Positions 833 to 27,148 of a DNA stretch of 28,891 bases are shown one piece after another (position 1 is the stretch's first letter; every line of letters starts with the position of its first letter). The position numbers and the translations under genes are program-made. The notes beneath the pieces are model-generated. The model did no database searches. It worked only from the letters and a program-made list of their open reading frames with translations, and was not told the DNA's origin. This DNA comes from a virus: IMG/VR virus record IMGVR_UViG_3300017743_000079, positions 1 through 28,891 of that record; one strand, given 5' to 3'.

Positions 833-1795
833 TTATCGATAGTCGTTTAGGTCAAACTCCGTTCCATGCATTTTCATTAAATCTCTTTCGTGGTTTGTGT
901 AGACTAGGACTTCGGGGTCATCAAGAAGGAAGTCGCAACTACGACAATAATCAGGGTAGTTACCAGTGGTATGATCCTCACGGAGTTTGGTGTACTCTTC
1001 TCCTTCCCAGATTTCTTCAATGGTGTTTTTGCTAGTATGTCCAAGAACTGCTTCTTCATCTCTTCCGAGGACTTGGCAACACGGTGCAACAGCACCAGTA
1101 TTACCGTCAAGACCGCCAGCACGAATAACGACATCAGGACTAAAAGGTCTACCACAAGTTTTGACTTCTCCTTTTCTTTCGTTAGCACCGATCTCATATA
1201 CACCAGACCAGTTATGCATCTTCCAAATTTCTGTTTTGACCCCAAGGTCGTTGACCAACTTTTTATACTGTTGGAGTTCACTATTTAGGTTATCGTTGTC
1301 AGTAATCAAGTGATAGGTTGCGACCACACAGTCAGCATTTGTCTCGTCTACATACTTCTTCATCTCACGAATGTTATTCACAACAGTAGTAAAGTTTCCT
1401 CCAACAATGTTGTGCATCCACTCACCATACTTCTCTGCACTGTATCCGATGAAAGAGAATCGATAGAAGTCTAATCCTGCATCAACACAGTCTTTCATAA
1501 ACTGTCCCTGCATACGATACCCATTAGAGAACATGAAGCACTTTGCCCCATACTTCTTTACTATCTTGATATACTCTGGTAGGTTTCTATTGAGAGTAGG
1601 TTCACCACTACCCTCTAGGTTGACAACTCGTAACCCATGCTTGGCACAGTCTGCCACATTCTTCTCGAACTCTTCGAGTTTCATCTTTTTGAGAAACTTC
1701 TTGTCACGACCACCTGTACGCATATCCTGTGGACACATGGTACACGAGTAGTTACAACCACCGTTAATCTCTATTACTGCTCTATCAATTTTCAT
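833..1795 (-). CDS. Radical SAM protein with SPASM-like C-terminal domain
   Basis: The protein (about 320 aa) carries the radical SAM motif CNYSCTMC, with C14, C18 and C21 binding the [4Fe-4S] cluster that cleaves S-adenosylmethionine. A GEP-type motif follows (LEGSGEPTLN). The C-terminal half has further Cys pairs (APCC near 240, CRSC near 288) typical of the SPASM/twitch extension that binds auxiliary Fe-S clusters. I chose the ATG at 1795; a TTG at 1810 also opens the frame but is less likely. The start overlaps the upstream GT9-like gene by 11 bases, and GGAAAG sits a short distance before it. Neighbouring glycosyltransferases suggest action on a sugar or a peptide made in this cluster, but the substrate is unknown. 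Phage production of Fe-S enzymes fits the iscU gene elsewhere in this window. Confidence 0.88.
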   Translation of the reverse strand: MKIDRAVIEINGGCNYSCTMCPQDMRTGGRDKKFLKKMKLEEFEKNVADCAKHGLRVVNLEGSGEPTLNRNLPEYIKIVKKYGAKCFMFSNGYRMQGQFMKDCVDAGLDFYRFSFIGYSAEKYGEWMHNIVGGNFTTVVNNIREMKKYVDETNADCVVATYHLITDNDNLNSELQQYKKLVNDLGVKTEIWKMHNWSGVYEIGANERKGEVKTCGRPFSPDVVIRAGGLDGNTGAVAPCCQVLGRDEEAVLGHTSKNTIEEIWEGEEYTKLREDHTTGNYPDYCRSCDFLLDDPEVLVYTNHERDLMKMHGTEFDLNDYR

Positions 1796-2606
1796 CAAAT
1801 AACTTTCCAAGTTTCTTCAAGTATCTATCTGCTTTAGATTGCATATGTTTGTGACCTTGCTCTGTGAAACTTTCTACAAACTTCATTGTATGTTCTCTAT
1901 TAGGTCTACATACTACCTGTGGACAATGGTATCCAGTAATGCCTTCCCATGAAGGAATGAATATAGGTGTAGCAAACATTTTAGCAATATAATGCCACAT
2001 ACCATCGTAACAAAAAACATAATCAGCATCTTGTATCTGTTTGTATACATCTCTGATTGGAGTCCTGTAGGTCAACTCTACTGGTATCCAACCCTCCGCA
2101 GACAGTGAGCTTATTATATCACCCCAATCATCTTTTGTCAAGAACCTTTTCCATTTTCTTGGTGGTTCACTATTATATGTGGGTGTCCATATAGCAATCT
2201 TCTTTGTCTTGATATGATTTCGATATTCTTCCTTCTTGAATACCCAGTCCATTTCTTGGGGACATTGTTTGTTCCTATATGCACCAGAACCAAAATGAAA
2301 TCGTATCTTTTCTTTTATACCGTTAGTGTTACCAGAGTCAAATAGATCAGAATTATAGACATGGGTAACTGTCACATCTTCTTGACGATGGAACTTGGTA
2401 TGAATCCAAGTCATTCGTTCAACAATAGTTTCGGGGTCGTCAGGAGTCTCTAGGTGACCTTCATCAGTCTCCCAGTGCATCTCCAAATGGATTTGTTTCT
2501 TGGTGCGGTAGGCATAGTTGTGGCAGACATTCAATGCCAACATAAAGTCACCTACACCCCAAGTACCTCTCCATCGAACTCTTTCGATGTCTCTCAGGTC
2601 TGCCAT
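1785..2606 (-). CDS. GT9-like glycosyltransferase (GT-B fold)
   Basis: This 273-aa protein starts MADLRDIERVRWRGTWGVGD, where the N-terminal GxGD-like turn is typical of GT-B enzymes. The C-terminal half has the pattern DADYVFCYDGMWHYIAKMF followed by TPIFIPSWEG, which matches the family-9 (heptosyltransferase-like) donor-binding region of the form D-G-x-x-H-x-A-x-x-x-x-x-P. It is probably a soluble enzyme using a nucleotide sugar. The ATG immediately follows the TAA of the EF-hand gene (no gap), and the 3' end overlaps the radical SAM gene. The family call is a by-eye match; a different GT-B family or a degenerate relative is possible. Confidence 0.65.
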   Translation of the reverse strand: MADLRDIERVRWRGTWGVGDFMLALNVCHNYAYRTKKQIHLEMHWETDEGHLETPDDPETIVERMTWIHTKFHRQEDVTVTHVYNSDLFDSGNTNGIKEKIRFHFGSGAYRNKQCPQEMDWVFKKEEYRNHIKTKKIAIWTPTYNSEPPRKWKRFLTKDDWGDIISSLSAEGWIPVELTYRTPIRDVYKQIQDADYVFCYDGMWHYIAKMFATPIFIPSWEGITGYHCPQVVCRPNREHTMKFVESFTEQGHKHMQSKADRYLKKLGKLFDEN

Positions 2607-9967: not shown

Positions 9968-10348
9968 TTATTTCCTTTTATCTTTGTAATCTTTTATTGC
10001 CGCCTTTATCGCATCTTCGGCAAGTACACTACAGTGGATTTTGACTGGTGGTAGTGCGAGTTCTGATGCAATGTCCGTGTTTTTAATATTCCCTGCTTCA
10101 TCAAGATTGCGACCTTTAACCCATTCGGTAAGCAGGGAGGAAGATGCGATAGCACTTCCGCATCCGTAGGTTTTAAATTTAGCATCTTCGATAATTCCAT
10201 TGTCATTCACCTTTATTTGTAGTTGCATAACATCTCCACAAGCAGGAGCACCTACCATGCCTGTTCCAATGTCAGAATCTTGTTTGTTAAATTTTCCTAC
10301 ATTCCTTGGGTTCTCGTAGTGGTCAAGAACCTTCTCTGAGTATGCCAT
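9968..10348 (-). CDS. iscU: IscU-type iron-sulfur cluster scaffold
   Basis: The 126-aa protein is close to bacterial IscU along its whole length. It keeps the three cluster-binding cysteines C37 (APACGD), C63 (YGCGSAIASSS) and C106 (KIHCS), plus D39 and H105. The HscA-recognition motif LPPVK (99-103) is intact, so it could take sulfur from a host IscS and hand clusters on through host HscA/HscB. It has no N- or C-terminal extension. It sits between nrdA and nrdB, with GAGGG at the end of nrdA 7 bases before its ATG. No iscS, hscA or ferredoxin gene is in the window. The high similarity to proteobacterial IscU suggests acquisition from a host. Confidence 0.95.
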   Translation of the reverse strand: MAYSEKVLDHYENPRNVGKFNKQDSDIGTGMVGAPACGDVMQLQIKVNDNGIIEDAKFKTYGCGSAIASSSLLTEWVKGRNLDEAGNIKNTDIASELALPPVKIHCSVLAEDAIKAAIKDYKDKRK

Positions 10349-10351
10349 CTG

Positions 10352-12340
10352 CTAACCCTCGCAAGCACGACATTCGTCAGTTTCTCCAGTTTCTAATGGT
10401 CGGTCTAGATATGCCATTAGTTCTTCATAACCACCTACATATTCACCTTCGATATAAATCTGCGGTACAGTCTTGACCTCTCGACCAGTAACCTCTCTCG
10501 CAGTCTTGCCAATATCGGCAAGGTCAATCTTGTCAAATGGAATCCCTCTCAACTTGAGTTCCTCCATTGCCATTGCACAGAAAGGACAGTTGCCCTTGGT
10601 GTAGACGATTGACCGAGTATCACCTTGTAATGCAACTCGTTCTACTTTCTCCGATACATTTTCGGCACGTTGCTTTGCTTCGGTACGGAGATAGTACAGA
10701 CCTTTCAGTCCTTCTCTCCATGCTTTGAGATGTACCTTATTTACATAGGACTTCTCTGCACCCGATGGGAAGAATAAGTTTACACTCTGCCCTTGACAAA
10801 TGTAGGGTTGTCTTTCGGATGCGTGGGTAACAACCCAGTTCATATCCAACTCAGCGGCAGTCTTGTAGATTGCCTTCTCACCTTCGGTCAGAAACGGTAG
10901 ATGTTGTACCGATCCTTTATTGGTGATAATAGATGTCCAGTTGGACTGGTTGTTCTCACCCTTCTCATCCAAGAGTCGAGTCAAGTACTTGTTTTTCACA
11001 AGGAATGATCCTGCTCTTGTACGATGGGTATATGCGTTTGCCTTCATCGGTTCGATAGAAGGACTTGTTGATAGAATCACACCAGACGAGGCATTAGGTG
11101 CAATCGCAAGAAGATGGGCATTCCTTCTTCCAGTTCCCTCTCCATCGGGATACTCTCCTCTTTCTTTCGCAAGCAGTTTTGTCTCTGCGACTGCCTCAGA
11201 GTTGATGTGTTTGAATACGACTTTATTGATCTCTCTTGCCGATTCAGATTCCCATGCGACTCCATGTTTTTGTAACAAGGAATGGAATCCCATTGCTCCG
11301 AGTCCAATGCTTCGTTCTTGCTTTGCAGAATACTTTGCTCTTGGTATAGTGTCTGGTGCTTCGTTGATGAAGTACTCCAGAACATTATCCAACATCCTAA
11401 TAATATCCCGAACAATGCTCGTGTCTTTCCACTCATCATAATACTCTAGATTGAGAGAAGATAGGCAACAAACGGCAGTACGGTCTCCATCTGTGGGCAG
11501 ATGTATCTCATTGCATAAATTTGAACCATGAATCTTTAATCCTTTATCTTTTAGTGATTGGGGTAGTGCTTTGTTTGCCGTATCGATGAAGTTCAGATAT
11601 GGTTCACCTGTACGGAATCTTGTTTCAAGAATGCGTTCCCACAGTTTACGAGCAGGGATCGTTTCTTTTACAGTGTCATCCTTGGGGTCTCGCAAACTCC
11701 AATCAAAACCCATAGACACACAGTCCATGAACTCGTCAGAAATGTTGATTGCGTTGTGTAGGTTCAGTGCCTTTCGTTGCACATCACCAGTAGGTACTCT
11801 GAGATTTAGAAATTCAATAATGTCTGGATGACTGACATCCATGTAGGCGGCATACGAACCCTTCCGAGTCTTACCCTGTCTGTATGCGATCATGTCGGCA
11901 TCTACAGTATGAAGAAAAGGAATCGGTCCCGGTGCAATGTCGGATACTGTCCGAACATCTGACCAGTGACCACCTACACCACCACCATAGACAGACAACC
12001 ATCTCAACTCAGATGAGTGACCGATCAATCCTTCTAGGGTATCTGGAACATAGGTTAGGAAACAAGAGATGGGCATCCCTTTGCTTTTCATGTCGTGTCC
12101 ATTGGGTGCATTCGATAGAACTGGTGATGCAAACATGAACCATTTGTTTGAGACATAATCATAGAGACGTTGTGCTAATGCATCATCCATCTCATCTCGG
12201 TATTTACTCCATGCTTTACTTGCTCTTGCGAAACCCTCTTGTGGACTCTTCTCATAATCATTTAGGTAGAAATCTTTTAACATTCCTACTGCGTATTCTG
12301 CTAGTAGGTCGTCTTTCTTCTTATCAATTTTTAGGGTCAT
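10352..12340 (-). CDS. nrdA: Class I ribonucleotide reductase, large subunit with inserted glutaredoxin domain
   Basis: From ATG 12340 the protein is 662 aa; the open frame extends upstream to 12427, but that part lies over the promoter. Catalytic residues are present: C93 (MPISCFL), N274-C276-E278 (SNLCNEI), C291/C292, and the tyrosine pair in GLYYLRT (Y549, Y550). There is no N-terminal ATP-cone. Residues about 577-648 form a glutaredoxin domain with active site CPFC (585-588), TVP (624-626) and a GGY turn. The chain then ends in CRACEG (C657, C660), the swinging redox tail of NrdA. The glutaredoxin is therefore inserted just before the tail it should reduce. First gene of the nrdA-iscU-nrdB operon. 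Confidence 0.95.
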   Translation of the reverse strand: MTLKIDKKKDDLLAEYAVGMLKDFYLNDYEKSPQEGFARASKAWSKYRDEMDDALAQRLYDYVSNKWFMFASPVLSNAPNGHDMKSKGMPISCFLTYVPDTLEGLIGHSSELRWLSVYGGGVGGHWSDVRTVSDIAPGPIPFLHTVDADMIAYRQGKTRKGSYAAYMDVSHPDIIEFLNLRVPTGDVQRKALNLHNAINISDEFMDCVSMGFDWSLRDPKDDTVKETIPARKLWERILETRFRTGEPYLNFIDTANKALPQSLKDKGLKIHGSNLCNEIHLPTDGDRTAVCCLSSLNLEYYDEWKDTSIVRDIIRMLDNVLEYFINEAPDTIPRAKYSAKQERSIGLGAMGFHSLLQKHGVAWESESAREINKVVFKHINSEAVAETKLLAKERGEYPDGEGTGRRNAHLLAIAPNASSGVILSTSPSIEPMKANAYTHRTRAGSFLVKNKYLTRLLDEKGENNQSNWTSIITNKGSVQHLPFLTEGEKAIYKTAAELDMNWVVTHASERQPYICQGQSVNLFFPSGAEKSYVNKVHLKAWREGLKGLYYLRTEAKQRAENVSEKVERVALQGDTRSIVYTKGNCPFCAMAMEELKLRGIPFDKIDLADIGKTAREVTGREVKTVPQIYIEGEYVGGYEELMAYLDRPLETGETDECRACEG

Positions 12341-12379
12341 ATTGTCTTTTCCATAGGGTATAATTTTTCGGAGGGTAAT

Positions 12380-12406
12380 ATTATATATACCCTTTCGTTT
12401 TTTCAA
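12380..12406 (-). promoter_or_regulatory. Likely nrdA promoter
   Basis: On the minus strand, TTGAAA (12401-12406) and TATAAT (12380-12385) have a 15-base spacer; reading the -10 as TAATAT gives 17. The -10 lies in the loop of a hairpin with GGGTA/TACCC arms (12373-12392). The leader to the ATG at 12340 is about 35-40 bases and contains TACCCTATGG again. Strength should be moderate. Confidence 0.6.
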
Positions 12407-12415
12407 GTATGCTAT

Positions 12416-12437
12416 TATACCCCACAAAGGGGGTATA
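12416..12437 (-). promoter_or_regulatory. Hairpin between holin and nrdA
   Basis: A perfect 8-bp inverted repeat (TATACCCC, six-base loop, GGGGTATA) sits 20 bases past the holin stop and just before the nrdA promoter. No T-run follows on the minus strand, so it is either a weak terminator, an RNA-end-protecting hairpin or an operator. The GGGTATA core recurs four more times, in both orientations, within the next 80 bases. Confidence 0.5.
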
Positions 12438-13687: not shown

Positions 13688-15088
13688 TTATATGTTTTGT
13701 CCAATATCATGGGAGAAAGTTGCATCAAAGACACTCTCCCTCATCTCTTGGTAATCTGCCTGTACAGCATCCTTGTGTGGAGTTATAAATTCGTAGTTAT
13801 GTCTCTTCAACAACATCTTCTGAATCGGAGTGTCCAGTGCATCACCCAACAAGAACTTCTTCGGTGTCTTTTTGATCTCGTGGAATATCCTTCGATCACA
13901 ATACAATGAGGTACACAATACATCTGAGTTTACTGTAATGTTCCTATTATATAGTTTGGGAGACCAACCTTTGAGCATATCATACTTTGCCCTGTCCCAT
14001 TCGGGTCTCTTATCATATCGAAACCACTCATCCAACCACTCATCCAGATATGTCATTGCATTCTTATGTTTACCTACAGTATATGATGCACCATAGAAAT
14101 GCTTTCTTTTTTCTATCTCAGACTTAATATGTAACTTTAACAATGAAGGTTGTTTCGATCTATTGTTCTGCATGACATAATGAAGGTAGGGAACCAACTT
14201 ATGAAGGCACATCTCATCTCCATTTGAACCATATACTACAATGTCTGGTTTGGTGTCGAGTTTTGCCAACTGCATAAATGTGGGTAGGAAGTCAACTCCA
14301 CGATTTGAACTGTCAACCAAATGCTCTGCCAGTAGATCAACACCTTTACTCAGATCAAGAACTTCCAGAGATACATCAGAAAACTTTTTGGCAGTCAACT
14401 GTTTGTATTTCATTGCATCATCTCCTGCCTCGGCAGGGGTGACATGGTACATATACTTCGGGTCATCCAGAAAGTACTGAGTCTGTAGTGCGGAATCGAT
14501 TCCCTCACTCAGAGAGATAAACCTGTTTTTAAAACGAGACTTTATCAGATTAGAATGTTGCTCCATGCATTCATGGATATAGTCAGCAAGTGGTTCGAGG
14601 TCTTTCCACTTTTCTTCTTCGAGTGCTCTCTTGGTATCACCAAGATAATCATACCTCGGCATCCACCCTTGGATGTGCTTATAGAATGTGTTATTCTCTT
14701 CTCTGCTATATTCCAAACACTGCACATCTTCTAGATATTTTGACACGACATCTGACTTATTACAGGTCATAAATGGTATGTGATTTGATATTTCTATACC
14801 ATACTTGTGTGCCACAAATATCTTATGCTGTTGGAAGTAGTCAATCGAAATATCGTAATGTCGTTTGGTTAGTTTGATTGCAAAGAAGTTTCCATTCTCG
14901 TCATCAAAACTCCATCTCTCACACGCATCCTCTATGTCACCTTCGATTAGGTAACCAGAGTATAGAACCATGTACTCATCACACTCCCAGACGGATACCT
15001 TATCGTCATGGTAGTAGCACCATTCACCATATTGTTTGTAACTGTGTTTGATAAACTTTGAAGGGTCTTTACAAATAAAAAATCTCAC
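13688..15088 (-). CDS. Asparagine-synthetase-like PP-loop protein
   Basis: The 466-aa protein has the ATP-pyrophosphatase (PP-loop) motif as SEGIDS (194-199, usual SGGxDS) and the second synthetase motif as GSNGDE (287-292, usual SGxGADE). These lie about 93 residues apart, as in AsnB. The first 110 residues resemble the class II amidotransferase half (GYLIEGD, FFAIKL), but Cys2, its catalytic nucleophile, is absent (residue 2 is Arg). It could therefore use free ammonia, or adenylate a different acceptor. The start is GTG 15088 with AAGGAG 5 bases before it. It follows two Cys-cluster genes and a glycosyltransferase, so it may amidate a sugar or a peptide. Confidence 0.75.
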   Translation of the reverse strand: MRFFICKDPSKFIKHSYKQYGEWCYYHDDKVSVWECDEYMVLYSGYLIEGDIEDACERWSFDDENGNFFAIKLTKRHYDISIDYFQQHKIFVAHKYGIEISNHIPFMTCNKSDVVSKYLEDVQCLEYSREENNTFYKHIQGWMPRYDYLGDTKRALEEEKWKDLEPLADYIHECMEQHSNLIKSRFKNRFISLSEGIDSALQTQYFLDDPKYMYHVTPAEAGDDAMKYKQLTAKKFSDVSLEVLDLSKGVDLLAEHLVDSSNRGVDFLPTFMQLAKLDTKPDIVVYGSNGDEMCLHKLVPYLHYVMQNNRSKQPSLLKLHIKSEIEKRKHFYGASYTVGKHKNAMTYLDEWLDEWFRYDKRPEWDRAKYDMLKGWSPKLYNRNITVNSDVLCTSLYCDRRIFHEIKKTPKKFLLGDALDTPIQKMLLKRHNYEFITPHKDAVQADYQEMRESVFDATFSHDIGQNI

Positions 15089-15089
15089 A

Positions 15090-15575
15090 TCATCTCCTTA
15101 GATATATCCATCCTTGATTAGTTTCAAGTTCAACAGGTAACTTTCTACCTATACTTATCTCTATCTCTTCAATCAAATTATCTAGTAATTGTTTATTGTT
15201 GTTATATTGTATTTCTGGTGGTAGTGTCTTGTCCATCGATAGTATAGTAATTGTATCGGGGTAGGGCCATGCATCAGGATAATTCTCATCATAGACATTG
15301 ACAGTTGCCATGAATCCACAATCCTTGGGGTAGTATTGATCGTCTAAATCCTGCTTCACATACTCACAGAAGAACTCACTACAGATACGAGGTTTGTTTT
15401 CTTGAATAGAACATCCAGTGTCACAGAGTTTATTACAAGTCTGCATTGGATCAAACTGTAAACCGAACTTCTGTGCTTCGTTATACTTATCCGTATATGA
15501 CCATTCACCAGTAAATCCTGCAATATGACAACACACAGTGCAGTCTCCACACCTCGGTTCAGTTGGAACAATCAT
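15090..15575 (-). CDS. YkgJ-type Cys-cluster protein, second copy
   Basis: The 161-aa protein has nine Cys in the first 70 residues: CGDCTVCC (C9, C12, C15, C16), C47, C51, C55, C65 and C70. This is the CxxCxxCC pattern of the YkgJ/UPF0153 family, thought to bind zinc or an Fe-S cluster. The first 70 residues are nearly identical to the adjacent upstream copy; the C-terminal halves differ. The ATG overlaps the stop of that copy by four bases. Family members often accompany modification enzymes, and the neighbouring asparagine-synthetase-like gene fits that; the reaction is unknown. Confidence 0.8.
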   Translation of the reverse strand: MIVPTEPRCGDCTVCCHIAGFTGEWSYTDKYNEAQKFGLQFDPMQTCNKLCDTGCSIQENKPRICSEFFCEYVKQDLDDQYYPKDCGFMATVNVYDENYPDAWPYPDTITILSMDKTLPPEIQYNNNKQLLDNLIEEIEISIGRKLPVELETNQGWIYLRR

Positions 15576-16030
15576 CGTAACAACATATCCCCTTGTTTGG
15601 TTATGAATTGTACTCTAAACCTTCTCCCTTCACAAACCTGTATTTCCTCAACGAGATCATCCAAAAGTTTTTTGTTATTATCATATTGAATCTCTGGTGG
15701 TAGGGTCATGTCTTTTGAGATAATAACAATTAAATCAGGATTCATATCTAAATCAATGTGTGCCACAAACCTAGAGTTCTTTGGATAATATACTTCATCT
15801 AAATCGTGTTCGATATAAGAACAGAAGAACTCACTACAGATACGAGGTTTGTTTTCTTGGATAGAACACCCTGTGTCACAAAGTTTGTTGCAAGTCTGAA
15901 ATGGATCATACTTTACACCAAACTTTTCTGCTTCGTTATACTTGTCTGTACATGACCATTCACCAGTAAATCCTTCAATTTCACAACACACAGTGCAATC
16001 CCCACACCTTGGTTCAGTTGGAACAATCAT
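15572..16030 (-). CDS. YkgJ-type Cys-cluster protein, first copy
   Basis: The 152-aa product starts MIVPTEPRCGDCTVCCEIEG and carries the same nine-Cys set as its neighbour: 9, 12, 15, 16, 47, 51, 55, 65 and 70. It has an extra Cys at 27 (GEWSC). The C-terminal half keeps the block TLPPEIQYDNNKKLLDDLVE shared with the second copy, so the whole gene was duplicated and then diverged mainly in residues 70-110. The start overlaps the 119-aa gene by four bases. Metal or cluster binding is expected from the family. Confidence 0.8.
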   Translation of the reverse strand: MIVPTEPRCGDCTVCCEIEGFTGEWSCTDKYNEAEKFGVKYDPFQTCNKLCDTGCSIQENKPRICSEFFCSYIEHDLDEVYYPKNSRFVAHIDLDMNPDLIVIISKDMTLPPEIQYDNNKKLLDDLVEEIQVCEGRRFRVQFITKQGDMLLR

Positions 16031-19855: not shown

Positions 19856-20358
19856 AAGAATGATCCTCCACCAGAGAGTCCTAGTTGTTTCGCATACCGA
19901 GGCAGTCTACACGCCCAGTATCTTGCTGTGGTCTTATCATTTGCTTGATCGCACTTATGACGAGCGGCAAATGACTTCCGTGCCTTCGGGTCATTCAACT
20001 TGACTTTCAGTCCAGTAGTATCACCCCAAGATATTTTCTTTATATTACCAGTCGATGGGTCTTTGACATACACATAGTACTTCTTTGACCCACCCTTCTT
20101 TGGTTTGTTTAGTTCAGGTTGTTTCTCTTCAAAGATACAATCCAGTGCAACATCCTCACCATTGAACTGTGCGAACTCACCAAGATTGGATTCCATTATG
20201 TCAATCTCACTTGGTTTGATTTCAAGTTCACCACTATTGTACTGTTCACGCAAGTCTCTCCAGTACTGGAAATACTTCTCCGAACCAACCCGATAGAGGT
20301 TGTTCTCTACCAGATCGGATTCTGAACCACAACTACAATGTTCGTTGAACGATTTCAC
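19849..20358 (-). CDS. Conserved T4-like marine phage protein (169 aa)
   Basis: Start GTG 20358 shares one base with the TAG of the preceding gene. The N-terminal 65 residues are acidic. The C-terminal half carries KYYVYVKDPSTGNIKKISWG and a second block ARKSFAARHKCDQ with YWACRLPRYAKQLGL and GGGSFFW at the end. This C-terminal module is one I recall as widespread in marine T4-like phages, sometimes near head genes, with no assigned function. The Arg/Lys-rich part may contact DNA. Confidence 0.72.
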   Translation of the reverse strand: MKSFNEHCSCGSESDLVENNLYRVGSEKYFQYWRDLREQYNSGELEIKPSEIDIMESNLGEFAQFNGEDVALDCIFEEKQPELNKPKKGGSKKYYVYVKDPSTGNIKKISWGDTTGLKVKLNDPKARKSFAARHKCDQANDKTTARYWACRLPRYAKQLGLSGGGSFFW

Positions 20359-22121
20359 TACCTACCCATTCTCTTCAATAGTGTTTTGATTGCACTCATA
20401 TCTTTGGATATAAGTTTCTGGAACTTTGTCTTGTCCACTGGTTTCTTCAAGGTGTTAAACATCTTGACGATCATCTTGGCATCGTCTTGAGAAATCTTAC
20501 CCTTCTTTTTACTATCAGGGAATTCAATATCACCACCTTTGGGTAGGTCAGATGCCTTACGAATTTGCATCAGAACATTCTTAGATGCCGCCTTACGATC
20601 ATCATCGGATGCCTTGTAGTCATCTACATCGGCAGGGTCAACACCTCGTTTGCCCATAGCAGACATTGCATCTCGTTTCGCACGAGAACTTTCCATGAAC
20701 TGTGCCAGATCAAATGAGTCCTTTAAACCATACTGCTTCTTGAGTTTCTCGTGCTCTGCCTTACGGTCTTTTGCTCGTTTGTCTAAGTCCAGTCCACCCT
20801 TCTTGAGTTTAGCACGGAGTCGGTCATGTGCAGAACCTTCTTCAACTTCCTCTTTCTTCATCAGTTTCATTGCAAGGTTAGCAAGTTGGGTAACTTTCAT
20901 CTTGTCCATCTTCCCCTTGTTCACATCATTTACCTTGTCGTAAATCTGAGAGATGGCAGATGCAGTAAACATATCAACCATGACACCTTGGATTTTCTTT
21001 GCCTGTTTCTTGGCAACAATGTCTTTGACATCAGAGATTACAGACTCGTCTAGTTGTACACTTTCAATGTACATATTCAACTCATACCGTTTGTTGTCTA
21101 GGTTTGCAACCTGTACATGAAGTTTCTGTTTCTTGTTGGTATCTAGGATATACTTATTGGTCTTACCACTGGATGGTCTCTTGGGCCCCATTGCCACCTT
21201 GTGGTCAACATCGTCTTTGTCTACGATGAAACCTTTCTTCTTTGCGTGTGCATATGCGTGTTGCATTGCACCAGAGAAGTCACGGTGATAGAGTTCGTAA
21301 CCAGACGAGGACTTTGCTTCATCAAGTTCTTCTTTTTTACTCTTGCCATGAGTTTTCTTTTTGAGGTCTGCAATTGACTTTTTAAGATTTTTCCTAACCT
21401 CTGGATTTTTAGGTGAACCACCTATTTTAGCATATGGATTAGATGCTTCGTTGATTTTTTTCTTTGCGTAGGCAATTGCCATCTTAGGGCCTTTCGCTGC
21501 CGTGACATCATCGGTGTCTTTCTCGTCAGTTTTCCAGAACATATTATGCATTTGTGTGCGTTCTTTTGCACTTGCAGACTTCATAAACTTGTTCAGAATT
21601 TTAGCATCTGCATTAGATAATTTATATGCCACCATGTCATCATAACTTCTATGTTTACCTACTTGGTGTATAGTGTTACCTTTATATGTCTTACTCACAC
21701 CTTCTTCAAGTTCAACTGACTCGTTTGCTTTCTTCATTGCCTTTGAAACAGCATCAGGTTTTTTGCGTTTAACCATTGCAATAAACTTTTGTAAAAGACT
21801 TTGGTCTTCTTTACTAGGTTTGAATCCTTTCTTTGCAGATTTTGCCTTCAACTTTTTTAGGTCATCTCGCATTGCATCCCCTGCTATGTACATAAATGGT
21901 AAAAGTGTGAGAAACATTGAACCAAAGAATGCCGCCGCCACGGGATCCGCTGCTTCTTTGATTTCTGGTTTCTCGTGGGTGTAACCCATCTTATCCATCT
22001 TCACATGGTCTGCATAGGTGTTTGCCTTATAACCCTTTCCAGTCTTGGGGTCATACATCATGTGTGGTTTGAAGTCTTCCTCACCTTTACATTCGGCAAG
22101 TATTTGTTTAATAGTTTTCAT
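20358..22121 (-). CDS. Modular Lys-rich protein (587 aa), candidate processed internal head protein
   Basis: Begins MKTIKQILAECKGEEDFKPH, resembling a T4 capsid-targeting N-terminus. A hydrophobic segment covers about 60-80 (FFGSMFLTLLPFMYIAG). The rest is a string of small modules, for example GNTIHQVGKHRSYDDMVAYK, GYELYHRDFSGAMQHAYAHA and HDRLRAKLKKGGLDLDKRAK, which recur singly in other marine phage proteins as far as I recall. Between them lie (I/L)xE-(A/G/S) sites at 56/57, 140/141, 225/226, 268/269 and 359/360. It may be a polyprotein cut by a prohead protease. The unprocessed function is unknown. Confidence 0.68.
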   Translation of the reverse strand: MKTIKQILAECKGEEDFKPHMMYDPKTGKGYKANTYADHVKMDKMGYTHEKPEIKEAADPVAAAFFGSMFLTLLPFMYIAGDAMRDDLKKLKAKSAKKGFKPSKEDQSLLQKFIAMVKRKKPDAVSKAMKKANESVELEEGVSKTYKGNTIHQVGKHRSYDDMVAYKLSNADAKILNKFMKSASAKERTQMHNMFWKTDEKDTDDVTAAKGPKMAIAYAKKKINEASNPYAKIGGSPKNPEVRKNLKKSIADLKKKTHGKSKKEELDEAKSSSGYELYHRDFSGAMQHAYAHAKKKGFIVDKDDVDHKVAMGPKRPSSGKTNKYILDTNKKQKLHVQVANLDNKRYELNMYIESVQLDESVISDVKDIVAKKQAKKIQGVMVDMFTASAISQIYDKVNDVNKGKMDKMKVTQLANLAMKLMKKEEVEEGSAHDRLRAKLKKGGLDLDKRAKDRKAEHEKLKKQYGLKDSFDLAQFMESSRAKRDAMSAMGKRGVDPADVDDYKASDDDRKAASKNVLMQIRKASDLPKGGDIEFPDSKKKGKISQDDAKMIVKMFNTLKKPVDKTKFQKLISKDMSAIKTLLKRMGR

Positions 22122-22364
22122 TTATGCTAAATCCTTATCGTGGTTCAAACCACCTTTTTTCTTTTTGACTATGAACGCATTTACTCTTGCGTATCCCCAT
22201 TGTTGTGGTGTGGTTCCCGGTCGATGACCAGTTTTCCATGCCGCCACTCCACGATTGTATACCTTCCGTAATGTAGCAAGAGAGATTCCAGACTTCTTTG
22301 CCTTATCTGCCAGTGCACCCTCAATGAGTTGCCCTGCTCGTTTTGTTAATGCCATCTTTATCAT
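22122..22364 (-). CDS. DUF5824-like small protein (80 aa)
   Basis: The protein has the signature KSGISLATLRKVYNRGVAAW followed by GHRPGTTPQQWGYARVNAFI. I recall this block as DUF5824, found in phages and in some large eukaryotic viruses. The ATG at 22364 makes a TAATG junction with the upstream gene (a second ATG at 22355 is possible). It is basic and probably binds nucleic acid. Function unknown. Confidence 0.75.
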   Translation of the reverse strand: MIKMALTKRAGQLIEGALADKAKKSGISLATLRKVYNRGVAAWKTGHRPGTTPQQWGYARVNAFIVKKKKGGLNHDKDLA

Positions 22365-24193
22365 TACTTGGTTTCCCTATTCTTATTCCTTGCACGAGCA
22401 AGTCTGGCACGATCTAATGCACGATCATGCTTTCTACGATCTCTCTCTTTCTCTGCCTTGATCTTATCTCTGGCACGTTCGACTGCATCTTCGTTCTGTT
22501 GCGGAGTATCTTTCTTGTACTTCTTGACGAGTTTATCAGTACCTTCCTCTCCTGCACCACAACCCATTTCGGTTACAAAATTACTCGGTAATAGATCGTG
22601 AAGAACCTTTCGGTCTACACCCCTAAAACCAGACGCAACCCTTTGTGCGTAGTAGTGAGTACTGTGTCTCAGTGAACCACCACCCTCTTTCTTCTTACGA
22701 ACCAATAACTTCTTGAGAGTATCAAGGGCGCTTCCGTACACCTTCTTGTTGGTGGTAACAGACATCAACTTATTAAGCATTTTACCTTCGGTTTGTTCCG
22801 TGGTTATCGTCTTAGAAGAGGTCTTGAAGTCCTTCTTACGCATGATGGTTTTATTGATGACCTCGAACTCATCCTTGTTACGATCATAGTTGATCACAAC
22901 AGGTAGGTTCAGATCAGTCTGTAAATCTTTGATCACTGCTTCACTATCAGGATTCTGTCGAATGTTCTTTGCCTTTCTCTTGGCAATCTTCTTGAATACT
23001 CGTTGTAACTCTGCCACAGTGATAGGTGGATCGTTGCGTTTATCGTTCATACGATCAGCAAAGTGACGAGTAAATTCGATGTCCACATCAAACTTGGCAA
23101 GTAGTCGATCAGCAAACTTCTCAAGGTCATTGAGTTGCTTCTGAGATACTGCCTCGTACATATCCTTGAACTGTGTGGTGTACTTGGATGGTTTGGTCTT
23201 GGCAGTTGCATCTCCCGGTGCGGGTTTGTACGCACTCGGATCATCGTCTGCTTTCTTGCCATGCTTCTTGAAGTGTGCGTCTCTTTTAGACTTGGTAGAC
23301 TTCTCCAATCCTGCATAGTACTTCTTAGGTTGAGTACCTTTCTTGTCTTTGATGTCAGAGTCTTGAGGTGCTTTCTTCTCGACCAGTTCTACTGCATCCA
23401 ACCACTTACGAATTTTACGGTCACCGCATTCCACGATGACATAGTTAGAACCCAGTACCGATACGATACCGACCTCTTCACTTTCTTTGATAACAACAGT
23501 ATCACCAAGTTCAAACAGTTCACCTTTGACAAACTGTTCACGGATGTCCGATACTTTTGGCAATTCGATGTGTCTTTTGAAAGATGTCTCTTCCTTGAGA
23601 CCGAGACCCTTCCTAACGTCATTGAACAACTTACGAGTGTCCCTGTCCGACATAGACTTGGGAACACCCTGTGTGAATGCTTGATAATCATTTTCTTTGG
23701 CATTGGCACGTTGCTTGGATGCAGACATTCCTTCTACACCTTCTGCATCGGGGTCTCTTGCCCCTGCGGAAACAACCTTGATTGACTCAAAGTTATAGAA
23801 TCCGTGTCGTGCTTTTTTGCCGTTATACTTGTTCAGCAGGACATCAAACTCACGCAGACGATCTTCACCGACCACCATCGTGATGTTCTTATATCCTTGG
23901 TCATATAACTTTGCGGAGATGTCAAATACATTCTTGACACTCTTGTCCACCATGATGTTTCGACCATACTTGGGGAACATCTTGCGGAGGTGTTTTACTT
24001 TGTCAGAATATGACAGTGGGTCTTTGGCACCAACAGACTGAGAGACATAGACTTTCCAGTCTGCTCCCTTTGCTTTCTTGGCAATTGTATCTAATACTTT
24101 ACCATGACCAATGGTAGGTGGGTTCATTCTACCAAATGTAAAATAAACTTCTTTTGCTTCTTCGGTTAGGTACGACTTAAAATCTTTAATCAT
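22364..24193 (-). CDS. NMNAT/cytidylyltransferase-like fusion protein (609 aa)
   Basis: Start taken at ATG 24193 (MIKDFKSYLTEEAKEVYFTF); the frame opens further upstream, but that part overlaps the preceding gene. Residues about 17-200 form a nucleotidyltransferase domain with GRMNPPTIGHGK (T/HxGH motif at 27-30), VVGEDR and MSASKQR (156-162, the SxxxxR motif). Such domains transfer AMP or CMP, e.g. onto nicotinamide mononucleotide. Residues about 229-272 look like a KOW-type barrel. Residues about 375-455 hold HFADRMNDKR...VINKTIMRKKDF, resembling the DUF4258/RelE-like fold. A Lys/Arg-rich tail closes it. The first 11 residues resemble a capsid-targeting sequence. Confidence 0.78.
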   Translation of the reverse strand: MIKDFKSYLTEEAKEVYFTFGRMNPPTIGHGKVLDTIAKKAKGADWKVYVSQSVGAKDPLSYSDKVKHLRKMFPKYGRNIMVDKSVKNVFDISAKLYDQGYKNITMVVGEDRLREFDVLLNKYNGKKARHGFYNFESIKVVSAGARDPDAEGVEGMSASKQRANAKENDYQAFTQGVPKSMSDRDTRKLFNDVRKGLGLKEETSFKRHIELPKVSDIREQFVKGELFELGDTVVIKESEEVGIVSVLGSNYVIVECGDRKIRKWLDAVELVEKKAPQDSDIKDKKGTQPKKYYAGLEKSTKSKRDAHFKKHGKKADDDPSAYKPAPGDATAKTKPSKYTTQFKDMYEAVSQKQLNDLEKFADRLLAKFDVDIEFTRHFADRMNDKRNDPPITVAELQRVFKKIAKRKAKNIRQNPDSEAVIKDLQTDLNLPVVINYDRNKDEFEVINKTIMRKKDFKTSSKTITTEQTEGKMLNKLMSVTTNKKVYGSALDTLKKLLVRKKKEGGGSLRHSTHYYAQRVASGFRGVDRKVLHDLLPSNFVTEMGCGAGEEGTDKLVKKYKKDTPQQNEDAVERARDKIKAEKERDRRKHDRALDRARLARARNKNRETK

Positions 24194-24572
24194 CACTTTT
24201 GGTTCCACCACGTTTCTTCGCAAGTTCTGCTTTACGAACTTTGGGAAGAAGTTTCTTTGCAAGTTTTTGTATTTTGGGTTTCATCTTATCTAGTCGTTTC
24301 TCAATTGACTGTCTACGAGACATTGAGAGATCACCTTTGTCAATACCCTTAGTGATTTTTTTGAGTATGGTCATTCGTGCTTGCTTCTGAGCACGTTTCT
24401 TGAGTTTTTCGGGAGACGCAACTCTTCGTTCCGCTCGTTTGCGACCAAGTGCGATTTTTGCTTTATTTTTCTTGAAGGTTCGTGCCATCTTTAGACGTTG
24501 TTGCATGGTCAATGCTTCGTCTGGAGATTCGACAACCTTTATGAATTCTTTGAGTCCCATTGGTTTGGACAT
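24186..24572 (-). CDS. Very basic small protein (128 aa), probable internal/DNA-binding protein
   Basis: The 128-aa protein begins MSKPMGLKEFIKVVESPDEA and is then about one-third Lys and Arg, in helical repeats such as LKKRAQKQARMTILKKITKG and PKIQKLAKKLLPKVRKAELA. It has no Cys and no aromatic core, so it is likely to bind DNA or the prohead core. The N-terminal LKEFIKVVE is similar to the short starts of the neighbouring genes. AGGGG lies 7 bases before the ATG. Confidence 0.65.
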   Translation of the reverse strand: MSKPMGLKEFIKVVESPDEALTMQQRLKMARTFKKNKAKIALGRKRAERRVASPEKLKKRAQKQARMTILKKITKGIDKGDLSMSRRQSIEKRLDKMKPKIQKLAKKLLPKVRKAELAKKRGGTKSDD

Positions 24573-24581
24573 AGTTTACCC

Positions 24582-25799
24582 CTACGGTTTTTCCCATCCT
24601 TTCAGTATATCTGGACTGAAATTATTATACGAAAATTCTAGGCGGTCAACCAACTTGACCGCATCACCACCTAATTTGTCAATAGCAACAAAACCTTCTG
24701 CACCTGTGCGGAGTTTATAACCCTTCTTTGTCTGCACAAATGCATCAATATTTGAAATACTATTAAGTTTATTTATAAGTTTTAACTTTGCTAGTACAAT
24801 ACTTTTTTGTAAATCAAACATAGAAACGAGAGATTTTTTGTTTCTAGCAGAGAAGAACTTTAAAATTTCATCCAACTTCTGTTTCTGCACCATCTTACCC
24901 TTGTCAGACTTGCGTTTGTCCATCTCTTTCTGAAACTTATCCGTGACCCACTTGATCAATCCGTTCACATGAGTATTGCTGTTGGGTATGATACTCTGTG
25001 CTCGAACAAAGGTATTGTTGTACTGCTCAATCAATTGTGCAAGGTCTTGGTTTCTCTCCAACTCTCGCAGAGTAGAACCAGAAATCTTATTGAATATCTT
25101 TCCTGCGTTGGACAGATGCTTCGTAACTTCGGCAGTCTCTTTCTTATCTAGGGTTGCTCCAGATACATCTCTAAGCATTGCATCCTGCGACCAGACATTT
25201 TTACTTTTCTTAAATTTGGATATGTCCACTCCATAGGATGCTTTGAGTGACTCGAAAGTATTACCTGTATAGGTGGTGTGCCAGACGATTCCAATGGTTG
25301 CATCTCGAACTTCTTTTGCCTGTTCGTATGGGATTGCGTAGATGATCGTGTTGGGGTGGAAGGTTGTATACTTCTCACCTTCGATAGTCTCATTTTTAGT
25401 GTCTCCTTTTGAGAACAAGAAGTCCCCTTGAATGATACCCTTGATACCAAGTTCTGGTAAATGTTTCAATGCGAGTTTCATTTTGGTTGCCAGATCACCA
25501 CTGCCGATGTCTGCATCAATATCTGCATCGGTCTTGTAGACCTTTGGGTTCTTGGCAAACACACCCTTCTTGGCAACAAAGAACTCACCATCGGTTGGGT
25601 CTTGACCACAGAAGATTGCAGGGGCACCATCCCACTTGGTGGACAGTTTGCTCTTGGTTTCTCCTGCCAACATATCACGGAGTTCTCTCAGTGCATTGAT
25701 TGCCTGTCGAGTACCGTTGACACCCCCATAGAGAACCTTGTCCTCAATATGGGTCATGTGAGTATTCTTTTGTTCTGTTATGAATTCTGCAAATTTCAT
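24582..25799 (-). CDS. Ligase/nucleotidyltransferase-like protein with KxDG motif (405 aa, DUF6267-like)
   Basis: The protein starts MKFAEFITEQKNTHMTHIED. Residues 51-63 (KLSTKWDGAPAIF) contain KWDG (55-58), which looks like the KxDG nucleotide-attachment motif of covalent nucleotidyltransferases (DNA/RNA ligases, capping enzymes). Candidate later motifs are VAKKG (75-79), IIQGDFLF (122-129, in place of the EGE-type motif) and GIVWHTTY (170-177). I recall this family as DUF6267, common in marine T4-like phages. If active it would bind AMP on K55. Length and the helical C-terminal half differ from known ligases. Start overlaps the upstream stop (ATGA). Confidence 0.7.
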   Translation of the reverse strand: MKFAEFITEQKNTHMTHIEDKVLYGGVNGTRQAINALRELRDMLAGETKSKLSTKWDGAPAIFCGQDPTDGEFFVAKKGVFAKNPKVYKTDADIDADIGSGDLATKMKLALKHLPELGIKGIIQGDFLFSKGDTKNETIEGEKYTTFHPNTIIYAIPYEQAKEVRDATIGIVWHTTYTGNTFESLKASYGVDISKFKKSKNVWSQDAMLRDVSGATLDKKETAEVTKHLSNAGKIFNKISGSTLRELERNQDLAQLIEQYNNTFVRAQSIIPNSNTHVNGLIKWVTDKFQKEMDKRKSDKGKMVQKQKLDEILKFFSARNKKSLVSMFDLQKSIVLAKLKLINKLNSISNIDAFVQTKKGYKLRTGAEGFVAIDKLGGDAVKLVDRLEFSYNNFSPDILKGWEKP

Positions 25800-27148
25800 T
25801 TCTTGAATATCTTTTTAAAGTCTGCGGTTGCCACTGCTTGGAACTGTGGGTTTGCTGAGTAACTACCCTTGTATCTTACTTCAATATCAAGGATGGGTGA
25901 ACCATCGGAGTAGATTGACAGGAAGACCTTAGCGGCACCCGCACCCTTTTCCCATGCACCTATCTTACCAGAAGTCCTTTTTACTTCGAGGTTACTATTA
26001 TACAGGTCTTGAAGTGCGGTCACAATATTACTTAGTTCTTGACCATCTGCTTTCTCAACTTCTAACTTACCACGAACAAATCTGCCCACACCTGTCAATA
26101 GAGTAAACTGAAACTCTTCGGCAGATAATGTTTCATCCAGTTTTGTTCTGAATACAAGTTCAAGAAACTTCTCAACAAAGTTTTGATCGTGGGACTTGAT
26201 CACATTGAATACTTTCTTGAAGAAAATGTTTGTGGGTTTTTTGAGTTCTACACCCCAGACTTTGACAGGAATCGAATTGACTGCCTTGGAGTACTCTAGA
26301 GGTTTCATCTTACGAATATCTTGTTGTGATAACTTCAACTTATCCATGAGAACTCGTTCAAAGAATATCTTCTTCGCATTCTCAATCAGGATTGTATCTG
26401 CACCGACAATGTCCTGTAGTACACTTTCTTTACCAGTGATAGGTTTGTTGATAAGTGTTGGATCAGGAGATTTTAACGATGCCTTCTTCTTGAGAGAGTA
26501 TCCATAGAACTTACCCGAACTTGACTTGACCACTATGTCGGATGAATTGTAGTCTTTGATACGACCCAGTTTAGGGTTGAACTTCGCAATGTCTTTATCC
26601 CAACCTTTACCAGTCCAGTAGACTTTGGATGCCGTTCCTACTTCATCAAGAATATAGTTAGAGGCAGATATTGCGGTTGCAAGGTCATTGAAGTTACCTT
26701 GAAAGAAATCTAAGAAGTCGGGTCTACGATCTGAACCATCAACCTTTTTATAAATGTCCTTAGACTTCTCAATAAGGTCAACTGCTTCTTCTTGTGTAAG
26801 TGAAGAACCACCCTTGTATTTCAAGAGAACCAGACACGCAGTCATCATCTCTTGGACTTCGGTAGGAACTTTCTTACCACCTACACCAATAGAACCATCA
26901 CCAAACATCTGACTTGCGAAAGGAATCTTTAATCCATTATCCTTCACAAAGTCCTTGATCTTCTGTTCTTCATCTTCAAACGAGCGTTTGATTTTATACT
27001 TCTTTAGATCACCAGTGGATACCATGACCAGATCGTCTTTGTCTCCACCTTGGAGAAAAGAAATTAATTTCTGAATGTCGGCATCATCTGATGATGAATG
27101 TCCCACATTAAATGCCGCTTCAGAAAGAAATCTGTTAAATTTGAGCAT
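25796..27148 (-). CDS. Nuclease-like protein with possible PD-(D/E)XK core (450 aa)
   Basis: It begins MLKFNRFLSEAAFNVGHSSS, with a capsid-targeting-like start (FLSE then A). The segment 198-222 reads KDYNSSDIVVKSSSGKFYGY then SLKKKA; D204 and S218-x-K220 are spaced like the acidic-strand and (D/E/S)xK ends of the PD-(D/E)XK nuclease fold. A preceding TGKGWDKDI (179-187) could be an N-terminal Trp/Glu region of such enzymes. The rest is helical, with a second domain near 330-400. It lies just behind a late promoter. The nuclease call is inference; no other family fits by eye. Confidence 0.6.
   Translation of the reverse strand: MLKFNRFLSEAAFNVGHSSSDDADIQKLISFLQGGDKDDLVMVSTGDLKKYKIKRSFEDEEQKIKDFVKDNGLKIPFASQMFGDGSIGVGGKKVPTEVQEMMTACLVLLKYKGGSSLTQEEAVDLIEKSKDIYKKVDGSDRRPDFLDFFQGNFNDLATAISASNYILDEVGTASKVYWTGKGWDKDIAKFNPKLGRIKDYNSSDIVVKSSSGKFYGYSLKKKASLKSPDPTLINKPITGKESVLQDIVGADTILIENAKKIFFERVLMDKLKLSQQDIRKMKPLEYSKAVNSIPVKVWGVELKKPTNIFFKKVFNVIKSHDQNFVEKFLELVFRTKLDETLSAEEFQFTLLTGVGRFVRGKLEVEKADGQELSNIVTALQDLYNSNLEVKRTSGKIGAWEKGAGAAKVFLSIYSDGSPILDIEVRYKGSYSANPQFQAVATADFKKIFKK

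What the first reader, a model, noticed from the sequence alone, without database searches (positions are those of the whole stretch)
24582..25799. KxDG nucleotidyltransferase motif in a poorly known marine phage family
Seen: KWDG at 55-58 with later GIVWHTTY and IIQGDFLF; no standard ligase C-terminal domain. Known: the covalent nucleotidyltransferase superfamily uses a Lys in KxDG to bind AMP or GMP. Inference: a divergent ligase, capping-like or adenylylating enzyme, possibly injected.
Basis: partly seen in the sequence, partly recalled or inferred. Interest (0 to 1): 0.58.

Follow-up and report, generated by a model that had tools for sequence, protein, structure and literature searches.

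The report
Capsid-tagged ligase-like enzyme of marine phages
A gene of unknown function shared by hundreds of T4-like marine phages looks like an enzyme that carries a nucleotide on a lysine, as ligases do, and in this phage's lineage it bears the short tag that T4 uses to load proteins into its head for injection.

Summary
The ORF (minus strand, 405 aa) is Pfam DUF6267, a phage family of unknown function. K55, D57 and G58 of KWDG are invariant in 84 of 84 non-redundant homologues, as are E368, G369 and K382, which fit ligase motifs IV and V. Confident AlphaFold2 models weakly resemble ligases; for a shorter homologue all 50 rows shown are RNA or DNA ligases (best Z 9.2). No sequence profile links the family to any ligase. 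'Possibly injected' gains support: the N-terminus MKFAEFITE|Q resembles T4's capsid-targeting MKTYQEFIAE, 76 of 79 close relatives keep the pattern, and cleavage would leave the N-terminus of tagless cyanophage homologues. In phage S-CREM2, 4 of 6 proteins with the pattern are in the virion against 47 of 212 without; in S-SZBM1 1 of 3 against 26 of 215 (not significant). A HIGH-motif 'cytidyltransferase' gene follows in 314 of 319 loci of five clades, but 3 of 62 of a sixth. Fifteen of 18 DUF6267 phages lack four known ligase families, and a 2010 review found no DNA ligase in cyanomyoviruses. I propose a lysyl-AMP enzyme acting on polynucleotide ends, probably a ligase. Activity, substrate and packaging are untested.

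The parts
24582..25799 (-). DUF6267 protein, 405 aa, predicted covalent nucleotidyltransferase
   Evidence: PF19782 E=1.9e-104; pLDDT 91.4, pTM 0.87
25773..25799 (-). Capsid-targeting-like peptide MKFAEFITE, residues 1-9, with L/I-x-E cleavage motif at its end
   Evidence: T4 ipII/ipIII MKTYQEFIAE read; motif rule from PMC9026906
25740..25760 (-). Conserved N-terminal motif HxxHxED (residues 14-20)
25626..25637 (-). Motif I, K55-W-D-G58
25422..25430 (-). Motif III-like Q124-G-D126 (Asp where ligases have Glu)
   Evidence: motif name by my assignment
25269..25280 (-). Motif IIIa-like H174-T-T-Y177
   Evidence: motif name by my assignment
24759..25181 (-). Helical insert between motifs IIIa and IV (about residues 207-347); shorter in other clades
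   Evidence: Secondary structure of models
24687..24698 (-). Motif IV, E368-G-F-V371
   Evidence: register with chain 6vt1_A
24642..24656 (-). Motif V, K382-L-V-D-R386
   Evidence: register with chain 6vt9 and its kin
22364..24193 (-). HIGH-motif 'cytidyltransferase' (NMNAT-like) gene, likely start at the ATG at 24193, with tag MIKDFKSYLTE
   Evidence: (PHROG 3041, 395; CTP_transf_like E=6e-4, just below cut-off)
24186..24572 (-). Small basic protein between the two, tag-like MGLKEFIKVVE (outside the strict pattern)
25796..27148 (-). Upstream protein of 450 aa, PHROG 3060, tagged MLKFNRFLSE; overlaps the DUF6267 start by 4 nt
20358..22121 (-). Downstream protein of 587 aa, tag-like MKTIKQILAE (outside the strict pattern)
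   Evidence: related locus L009 has MKKLKEILAE inside the anchored pattern

Best explanation
DUF6267 is a covalent nucleotidyltransferase: K55 attacks the alpha-phosphate of a nucleotide (ATP most likely) to form lysyl-AMP, with E368 and K382 (motifs IV and V) completing the pocket, and AMP is then passed to an end phosphate, most likely of a nicked or broken polynucleotide, which is sealed. In cyanophages it is made in the cell, from the replication gene cluster. In the window's lineage and in methylophages an N-terminal capsid-targeting peptide routes it into the prohead; the prohead protease cuts after FITE, and the mature enzyme enters the host with the DNA, along with the tagged HIGH-motif nucleotidyltransferase encoded beside it. 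Shown: conservation, motif set, tag pattern, gene pairing. Inferred from a model: fold. Inferred only: activity, AMP as the nucleotide, polynucleotide substrate, packaging of this particular protein. My step-wise odds: lysine-nucleotidylate chemistry 0.85; packaged in this lineage 0.75; seals polynucleotide ends 0.45.
For: Invariant K55/D57/G58, E368/G369, K382. Models pLDDT 91.4 and 92.4; all 50 rows shown for the short homologue are RNA or DNA ligases, Z 9.2-5.5. For the window protein the last aligned pair with several Naegleria RNA ligase chains is 395 with 339, a shift of 56; E368-56=312 and K382-56=326 are the residues named as mutated in the entries titled E312A and K326A. Tag: 76/79 close relatives, 59/80 methylophage group, 0/79 and 0/78 in two cyanophage groups; spacing identical in 74/74 relatives with the anchored pattern. 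Tag and virion content in S-CREM2: 4/6 against 47/212, p=0.028 (table read). Four known ligase families absent from 15 of 18 DUF6267 genomes; cyanomyoviruses reported to lack g30 ligase (PMC2984593, passage read).
Against: No sequence-level link to any ligase: PDB profile search nothing, hhalign against a T4 Rnl2 alignment nothing. Foldseek to PDB has no hit at E<=0.001 and TM below 0.3 for ligase hits; Z of 8-9 is near what unrelated models can give by the tool's own note, and for the full-length model a helical Hsp70 fragment ranks first. Asp replaces the usual Glu of motif III. No OB or other ligase C-terminal domain. The tagless DUF6267 of S-SZBM1 and S-CREM2 is not in their virion tables, so no DUF6267 protein has yet been seen in a virion. 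The tag test in S-SZBM1 alone is not significant (1/3 against 26/215, p=0.33). 3 of 18 genomes also hold a canonical DNA ligase.
Confidence: 0.5

Rival explanations
1. It is a nucleotidyltransferase whose acceptor is not a polynucleotide: together with the NMNAT-like HIGH enzyme it adenylylates or guanylylates a host protein or small molecule, or caps RNA ends, as an injected host-takeover pair.
For: Pairing with the HIGH gene in 78/78, 66/66, 63/63, 56/58 and 51/54 loci of five groups; viral models of 591-601 aa, two of them named cytidyltransferase-like, that match DUF6267 at TMq 0.68-0.91, and PHROG 455 whose profile holds both parts, point to fusions; both are tagged in this lineage; family-specific invariants H14/H17/D20, HTxY, F389/N393.
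Against: One group (2014f) keeps DUF6267 without the HIGH gene in 59 of 62 loci. Best structural neighbours are ligases, with capping enzymes lower.
Confidence: 0.3
2. It uses NAD+ rather than ATP: the invariant N-terminal histidines handle NMN, and the NMNAT-like neighbour recycles NMN to NAD+.
For: N-terminal invariant H14, H17, D20; the NMNAT-like neighbour; NAD+ ligase adenylation domains appear among weak Foldseek hits.
Against: Pfam finds no NAD+ ligase domain in the protein and PF01653 is absent from all 19 phage genomes searched; the idea rests on neighbourhood; NMNAT identity of the neighbour is not shown here (one search found no solved relative by sequence).
Confidence: 0.1
3. A catalytically dead or structural internal head protein that keeps a ligase-like fold.
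For: Capsid-type tag; Asp at the motif III position.
Against: Motif I, IV and V residues are invariant in 84/84, also in tagless clades that lie beside replication genes.
Confidence: 0.08

Closest known systems
Pfam DUF6267 (PF19782), PHROG 455, cyanophage cluster T4-GC 71
   Same: It is a member (T4-GC label read in records)
   Different: No function was assigned; the family name occurs in no paper of the library searched
Naegleria gruberi RNA ligase, nucleotidyltransferase domain
   Same: Closest solved structures: Z 7.6-8.0 over 180-185 residues for the window protein, up to 9.2 over 177 for the short homologue; KxD, E and K at matching places
   Different: Its first 142 residues have no counterpart; DUF6267 has a helical insert, HxxHxED and Asp in motif III; 10-13% identity
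T4 RNA ligase 2 / T. brucei RNA editing ligase 1
   Same: Z 7.5 and 7.8; lysine and EG motifs
   Different: No sequence relation detectable to T4 Rnl2; Rnl2 has a further C-terminal domain (recalled)
T4 internal proteins IPII and IPIII (capsid-targeting sequence)
   Same: Aromatic-x-x-aromatic-I/L-x-E tag at the N-terminus
   Different: Cargo is an enzyme-like domain present without a tag in sister clades
T4 gp30 DNA ligase
   Same: Would be the functional counterpart if it seals DNA
   Different: Not recognised by PF01068; only 3 of 18 DUF6267 phages also have PF01068

Membership tests
Covalent nucleotidyltransferase superfamily (ligases, capping enzymes) | Motif I KxDG lysine | tested here: met
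   K55, D57, G58 each 84/84
Covalent nucleotidyltransferase superfamily (ligases, capping enzymes) | Motif IV EG and motif V lysine | tested here: met
   E368, G369, K382 each 84/84; spacing 14 as between E312 and K326 named in PDB titles
Covalent nucleotidyltransferase superfamily (ligases, capping enzymes) | Motif III glutamate | tested here: inconclusive
   Invariant D126 instead; residue pairing is not printed by the aligner
Covalent nucleotidyltransferase superfamily (ligases, capping enzymes) | Nucleotidyltransferase fold | tested here: met
   50 of 50 shown rows are members, best Z 9.2; weak by Foldseek, so met only on a predicted model
Covalent nucleotidyltransferase superfamily (ligases, capping enzymes) | Lysyl-nucleotidylate intermediate | not testable with these tools
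   Needs the adduct assay
Known ligase families by sequence (Pfam) | Profile match over cut-off | tested here: not met
   Only DUF6267 is over cut-off for the window protein and 6 homologues
DNA ligase | OB-fold domain after the nucleotidyltransferase domain | tested here: not met
   Both models end with one helix after motif V
Naegleria-type RNA ligase | N-terminal domain before the nucleotidyltransferase domain | tested here: not met
   Alignment starts at residue 11 of the model against chain residue 143
T4-type capsid-targeted internal protein | N-terminal targeting peptide with L/I-x-E cleavage motif | tested here: met
   rule from PMC9026906
T4-type capsid-targeted internal protein | Presence in the virion and cleavage | not testable with these tools
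   No proteome of a tagged DUF6267 phage was found; tagless ones are absent from two virion tables

The most novel reading that the evidence does not exclude
DUF6267 is the overlooked polynucleotide ligase of T4-like marine phages (Kyanoviridae and kin), a new ligase family with a helical insert and a fused or adjacent NMNAT-like partner, and some lineages ship it inside the capsid so that breaks are sealed before any phage gene is expressed.
Probability: 0.33. Interest if true: 0.82.

Novelty: new variant of a known kind. Interest (0 to 1): 0.62.

Why it matters
T4 has a DNA ligase at its replication fork, yet a review found none in cyanomyoviruses and guessed that the host's serves (PMC2984593). 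A widespread gene of unknown function beside the polymerase, UvsX and gp41 genes that carries the ligase residues makes that question testable by one adduct assay and one nick-sealing assay. The tag adds a second handle: a simple N-terminal pattern points to enzyme-like proteins in a cyanophage virion and suggests which marine phage genes are injected.

Tried and rejected
Sequence routes to a known fold failed: single-sequence and profile searches of PDB, NCBIfam, hhalign against an alignment of T4 Rnl2-type proteins. The PilJ, SoxY and similar hits are weak and were discarded. Hsp70-lid hits match helices and were discarded as generic. That Foldseek found no confident match is told as evidence against.

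The idea that every DUF6267 is injected was rejected: the tag is absent in two cyanophage groups (0/79, 0/78), rare in a third (2/80) and variable in the HTVC008M group (17/80). That DUF6267 strictly replaces ligases was rejected: 3 of 18 genomes have PF01068. A cellular home was not found: 41 of 118 candidate stretches in the genome collection encode a relative, almost all in marine MAG or single-cell contigs that I take for phage sequence without checking each; 14 control genomes hold none. No fused DUF6267-HIGH ORF was found among the fetched loci (0); the fusion claim rests on viral models, PHROG 455 and a reading of S-PM2.

The tag pattern was written after reading the window and T4 and before the two proteome tests. 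In the window it also matched an internal ATG (codon 40) of 13688-15088, which I take for chance. S-CREM2 gp12, gp15 and gp136 look tagged but fall outside the strict pattern and were not counted; gp85 was left out of the 218 tested. Three of the 30 S-SZBM1 virion proteins could not be assigned by length and count as not detected. Three of 497 loci without a located N-terminal motif were dropped.

Full report
What is there. The finding lies on the minus strand: an ORF of 405 aa at 25799-24582, whose start overlaps the stop of the upstream gene by four bases. Pfam calls it DUF6267 (E=1.9e-104) and PHROGs family 455, both without function. tblastn finds it in 468 of 50,697 phage records, nearly all T4-like phages of Synechococcus and Prochlorococcus, with Pelagibacter, Methylophilales and a few others; the best named relative is phage C48C1 at 64%. 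The window itself is a 28,891-base virus record.

Conservation. Six scans of viral contigs gave 479 loci with relatives (a seventh was for T4 RNA ligase 2), and 18 annotated phage regions were read. DUF6267 ORFs were found in 497 of 498 loci, the exception being L001, the window's own locus. In 84 sequences made non-redundant at 75% identity, 22 positions are invariant: H14 H17 D20 K55 D57 G58 G65 V75 K78 F81 Q124 D126 N150 Y154 H174 T175 Y177 E368 G369 K382 F389 N393; E19, N262, K338 and R386 are 83/84. K55-x-D-G, E368-G and K382 read as motifs I, IV and V of covalent nucleotidyltransferases; the naming of motifs is mine, from general knowledge of the superfamily.

Fold. AlphaFold2 with 111 sequences gives pLDDT 91.4 and pTM 0.87; the only run below 50 is residues 5-8, in the tag. 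Foldseek against PDB has nothing at E<=0.001, yet its first four rows are DNA ligases. VIA-align places Naegleria RNA ligase (Z 8.0, rmsd 3.8, 181 residues), T. brucei editing ligase (7.8), T4 Rnl2 (7.5), T4 Rnl1 (7.4) and fungal tRNA ligase among the top rows, mixed with Hsp70-lid hits to helices, one of which ranks first (8.2 over 73 residues). Because the insert of about residues 207-347 clouds this, I predicted a 300-residue homologue with a shorter insert (pLDDT 92.4). There all 50 rows shown are ligases; 13 chains reach Z 8, all of them Naegleria RNA ligase, the best 9.2 over 177 residues. For the window protein the last aligned pair with several Naegleria chains is 395 with 339, a shift of 56; E368 and K382 minus 56 give 312 and 326, the residues mutated in entries titled E312A and K326A. 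I read this as motifs IV and V in register; the aligner does not print pairs. Sequence profiles show no link at all, so the claim rests on predicted structure plus invariant residues.

The tag. T4 ipII and ipIII begin MKTYQEFIAE. According to a review, residues 4 and 7 of that peptide govern targeting, 8 and 10 processing, and the prohead protease cuts after L/I-x-E (PMC9026906, passages read). The window protein begins MKFAEFITE|Q. With the pattern [FYL]xx[FYLI][IL]xE near the start, 76 of 79 close relatives match, 59 of 80 in the methylophage group, 17 of 80 in the HTVC008M group, 0 of 79, 0 of 78 and 2 of 80 in three cyanophage-type groups, and 4 of 18 annotated phages. With an anchored form 74 of 79 close relatives match, and in all 74 exactly three residues lie between the tag's Glu and the located motif start (the Thr of TH); in the S-CAM9 group 76 of 79 have the start Met plus three residues before that point. 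So cleavage would recreate the tagless N-terminus, if the initiator Met is removed there (inferred).

Does such a tag predict virion content in this phage family? The S-CREM2 virion table (PMC10665884, section 18 read) lists 52 proteins. Of 218 proteins tested, 6 have the strict pattern in their first 20 residues and 4 of these are in the virion (S-adenosylmethionine hydrolase, kinase, cytidylyltransferase, gp13), against 47 of 212 without it (Fisher one-sided p=0.028); the same pattern at residues 61-80 occurs in 0 of 144. In S-SZBM1 (PMC9146016, section 27 read) 3 of 218 proteins match and 1 is detected, the cytidylyltransferase, against 26 of 215 (p=0.33). The DUF6267 proteins of both phages lack the tag and are absent from both tables. 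This agrees with the reading, but it also means that no tagged DUF6267 has been seen in a virion yet. The authors of the S-CREM2 paper caution that such enzymes might be carry-over.

Neighbours. Tagged genes cluster: in the window 25796-27148 and the downstream HIGH-motif gene match the strict pattern, and two more look tag-like; among close relatives the HIGH gene often begins MIKNFSQYLVEEE or similar, and the upstream gene differs in size from relative to relative yet is tagged in many. Where at least 1.5 kb downstream is held, the HIGH gene follows DUF6267 in 78/78 (window group), 66/66 (S-CAM9), 63/63 (P-RSM4), 56/58 (HTVC008M) and 51/54 (methylophage) loci, 314 of 319 in all, but in 3/62 of the ACG-2014f group and 12/18 annotated phages. 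Viral models of 591 and 601 aa align to the whole protein with TMq 0.91 and 0.82, the first named cytidyltransferase-like; I take these for fusions. In cyanophages the pair lies after UvsX, helicase gp41 and MazG genes.

Missing ligase. A 2010 review says that homologues of T4 g30 DNA ligase are not found in cyanomyoviruses and thinks host ligase stands in (PMC2984593, passage read). I searched 18 DUF6267 genomes and T4. PF01068 is in 3 of 18 (DLP6, XaC1, S-CRM01), PF01653 in 0, PF09414 in 1 and PF09511 in 1 (both XaC1); T4 holds PF01068, PF09414 and PF09511 and no DUF6267. So 15 of 18 have none of the four families. The sample was chosen for having DUF6267 and is not a random draw. A cyanobacterium among the controls has an NAD+ ligase, so the gap need not be filled by the phage.

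Literature. The word DUF6267 occurs in no paper of the library, and 'capsid targeting sequence' with 'cyanophage' only in the T4 review. A survey of viral NAD+ systems and one of jumbo phages do not name the family in the passages I read. NMNAT-like proteins in cyanophage virions are already reported (PMC9602691 and PMC10665884, passages). The Syn9 and S-CRM01 papers were not held, and the supplementary proteome tables of PMC3037559 were not read.

Verdict. The substrate is unknown. Ligase activity is my first choice because the nearest structures are ligases and most of these phages lack any other.

Noticed in passing
window 9968-10348: A NifU-like iron-sulphur scaffold gene (PF01592, E=1.1e-54) lies between the two ribonucleotide reductase genes.
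   Followed up: no
window 10352-12427: Ribonucleotide reductase large subunit ends in a glutaredoxin domain.
   Followed up: no
window 15090-15575 and 15572-16030: Two neighbouring genes with near-identical starts (MIVPTEPRCGDCTVCC...), a tandem duplication of a cysteine-rich protein; the one tested has no Pfam match.
   Followed up: no
L531-L533 (phage S-CREM2): The virion-detected Cas9-like nuclease gp12 has a tag-like stretch RFASFMAE about 18 residues in, and gp136 begins MQTFSMFFSE; both fall outside the strict pattern.
   Followed up: partly
L099 (phage S-CRM01) 5667-8132: A kinase gene two genes after DUF6267 begins MISFDQFLSE, and a putative kinase of this phage is reported in its virions.
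   Followed up: partly
L339-L418: The ACG-2014f-like DUF6267 subgroup sits without the HIGH gene in 59 of 62 loci, so the pairing is not obligate.
   Followed up: partly
L536 26312-27126 (phage S-SZBM1): Two small genes begin MKSFKSFLSES and MKTFKQYITEA but are not in the virion table; possible undetected internal proteins.
   Followed up: no
window 833-1810: Radical SAM protein with SPASM domain in a phage.
   Followed up: no
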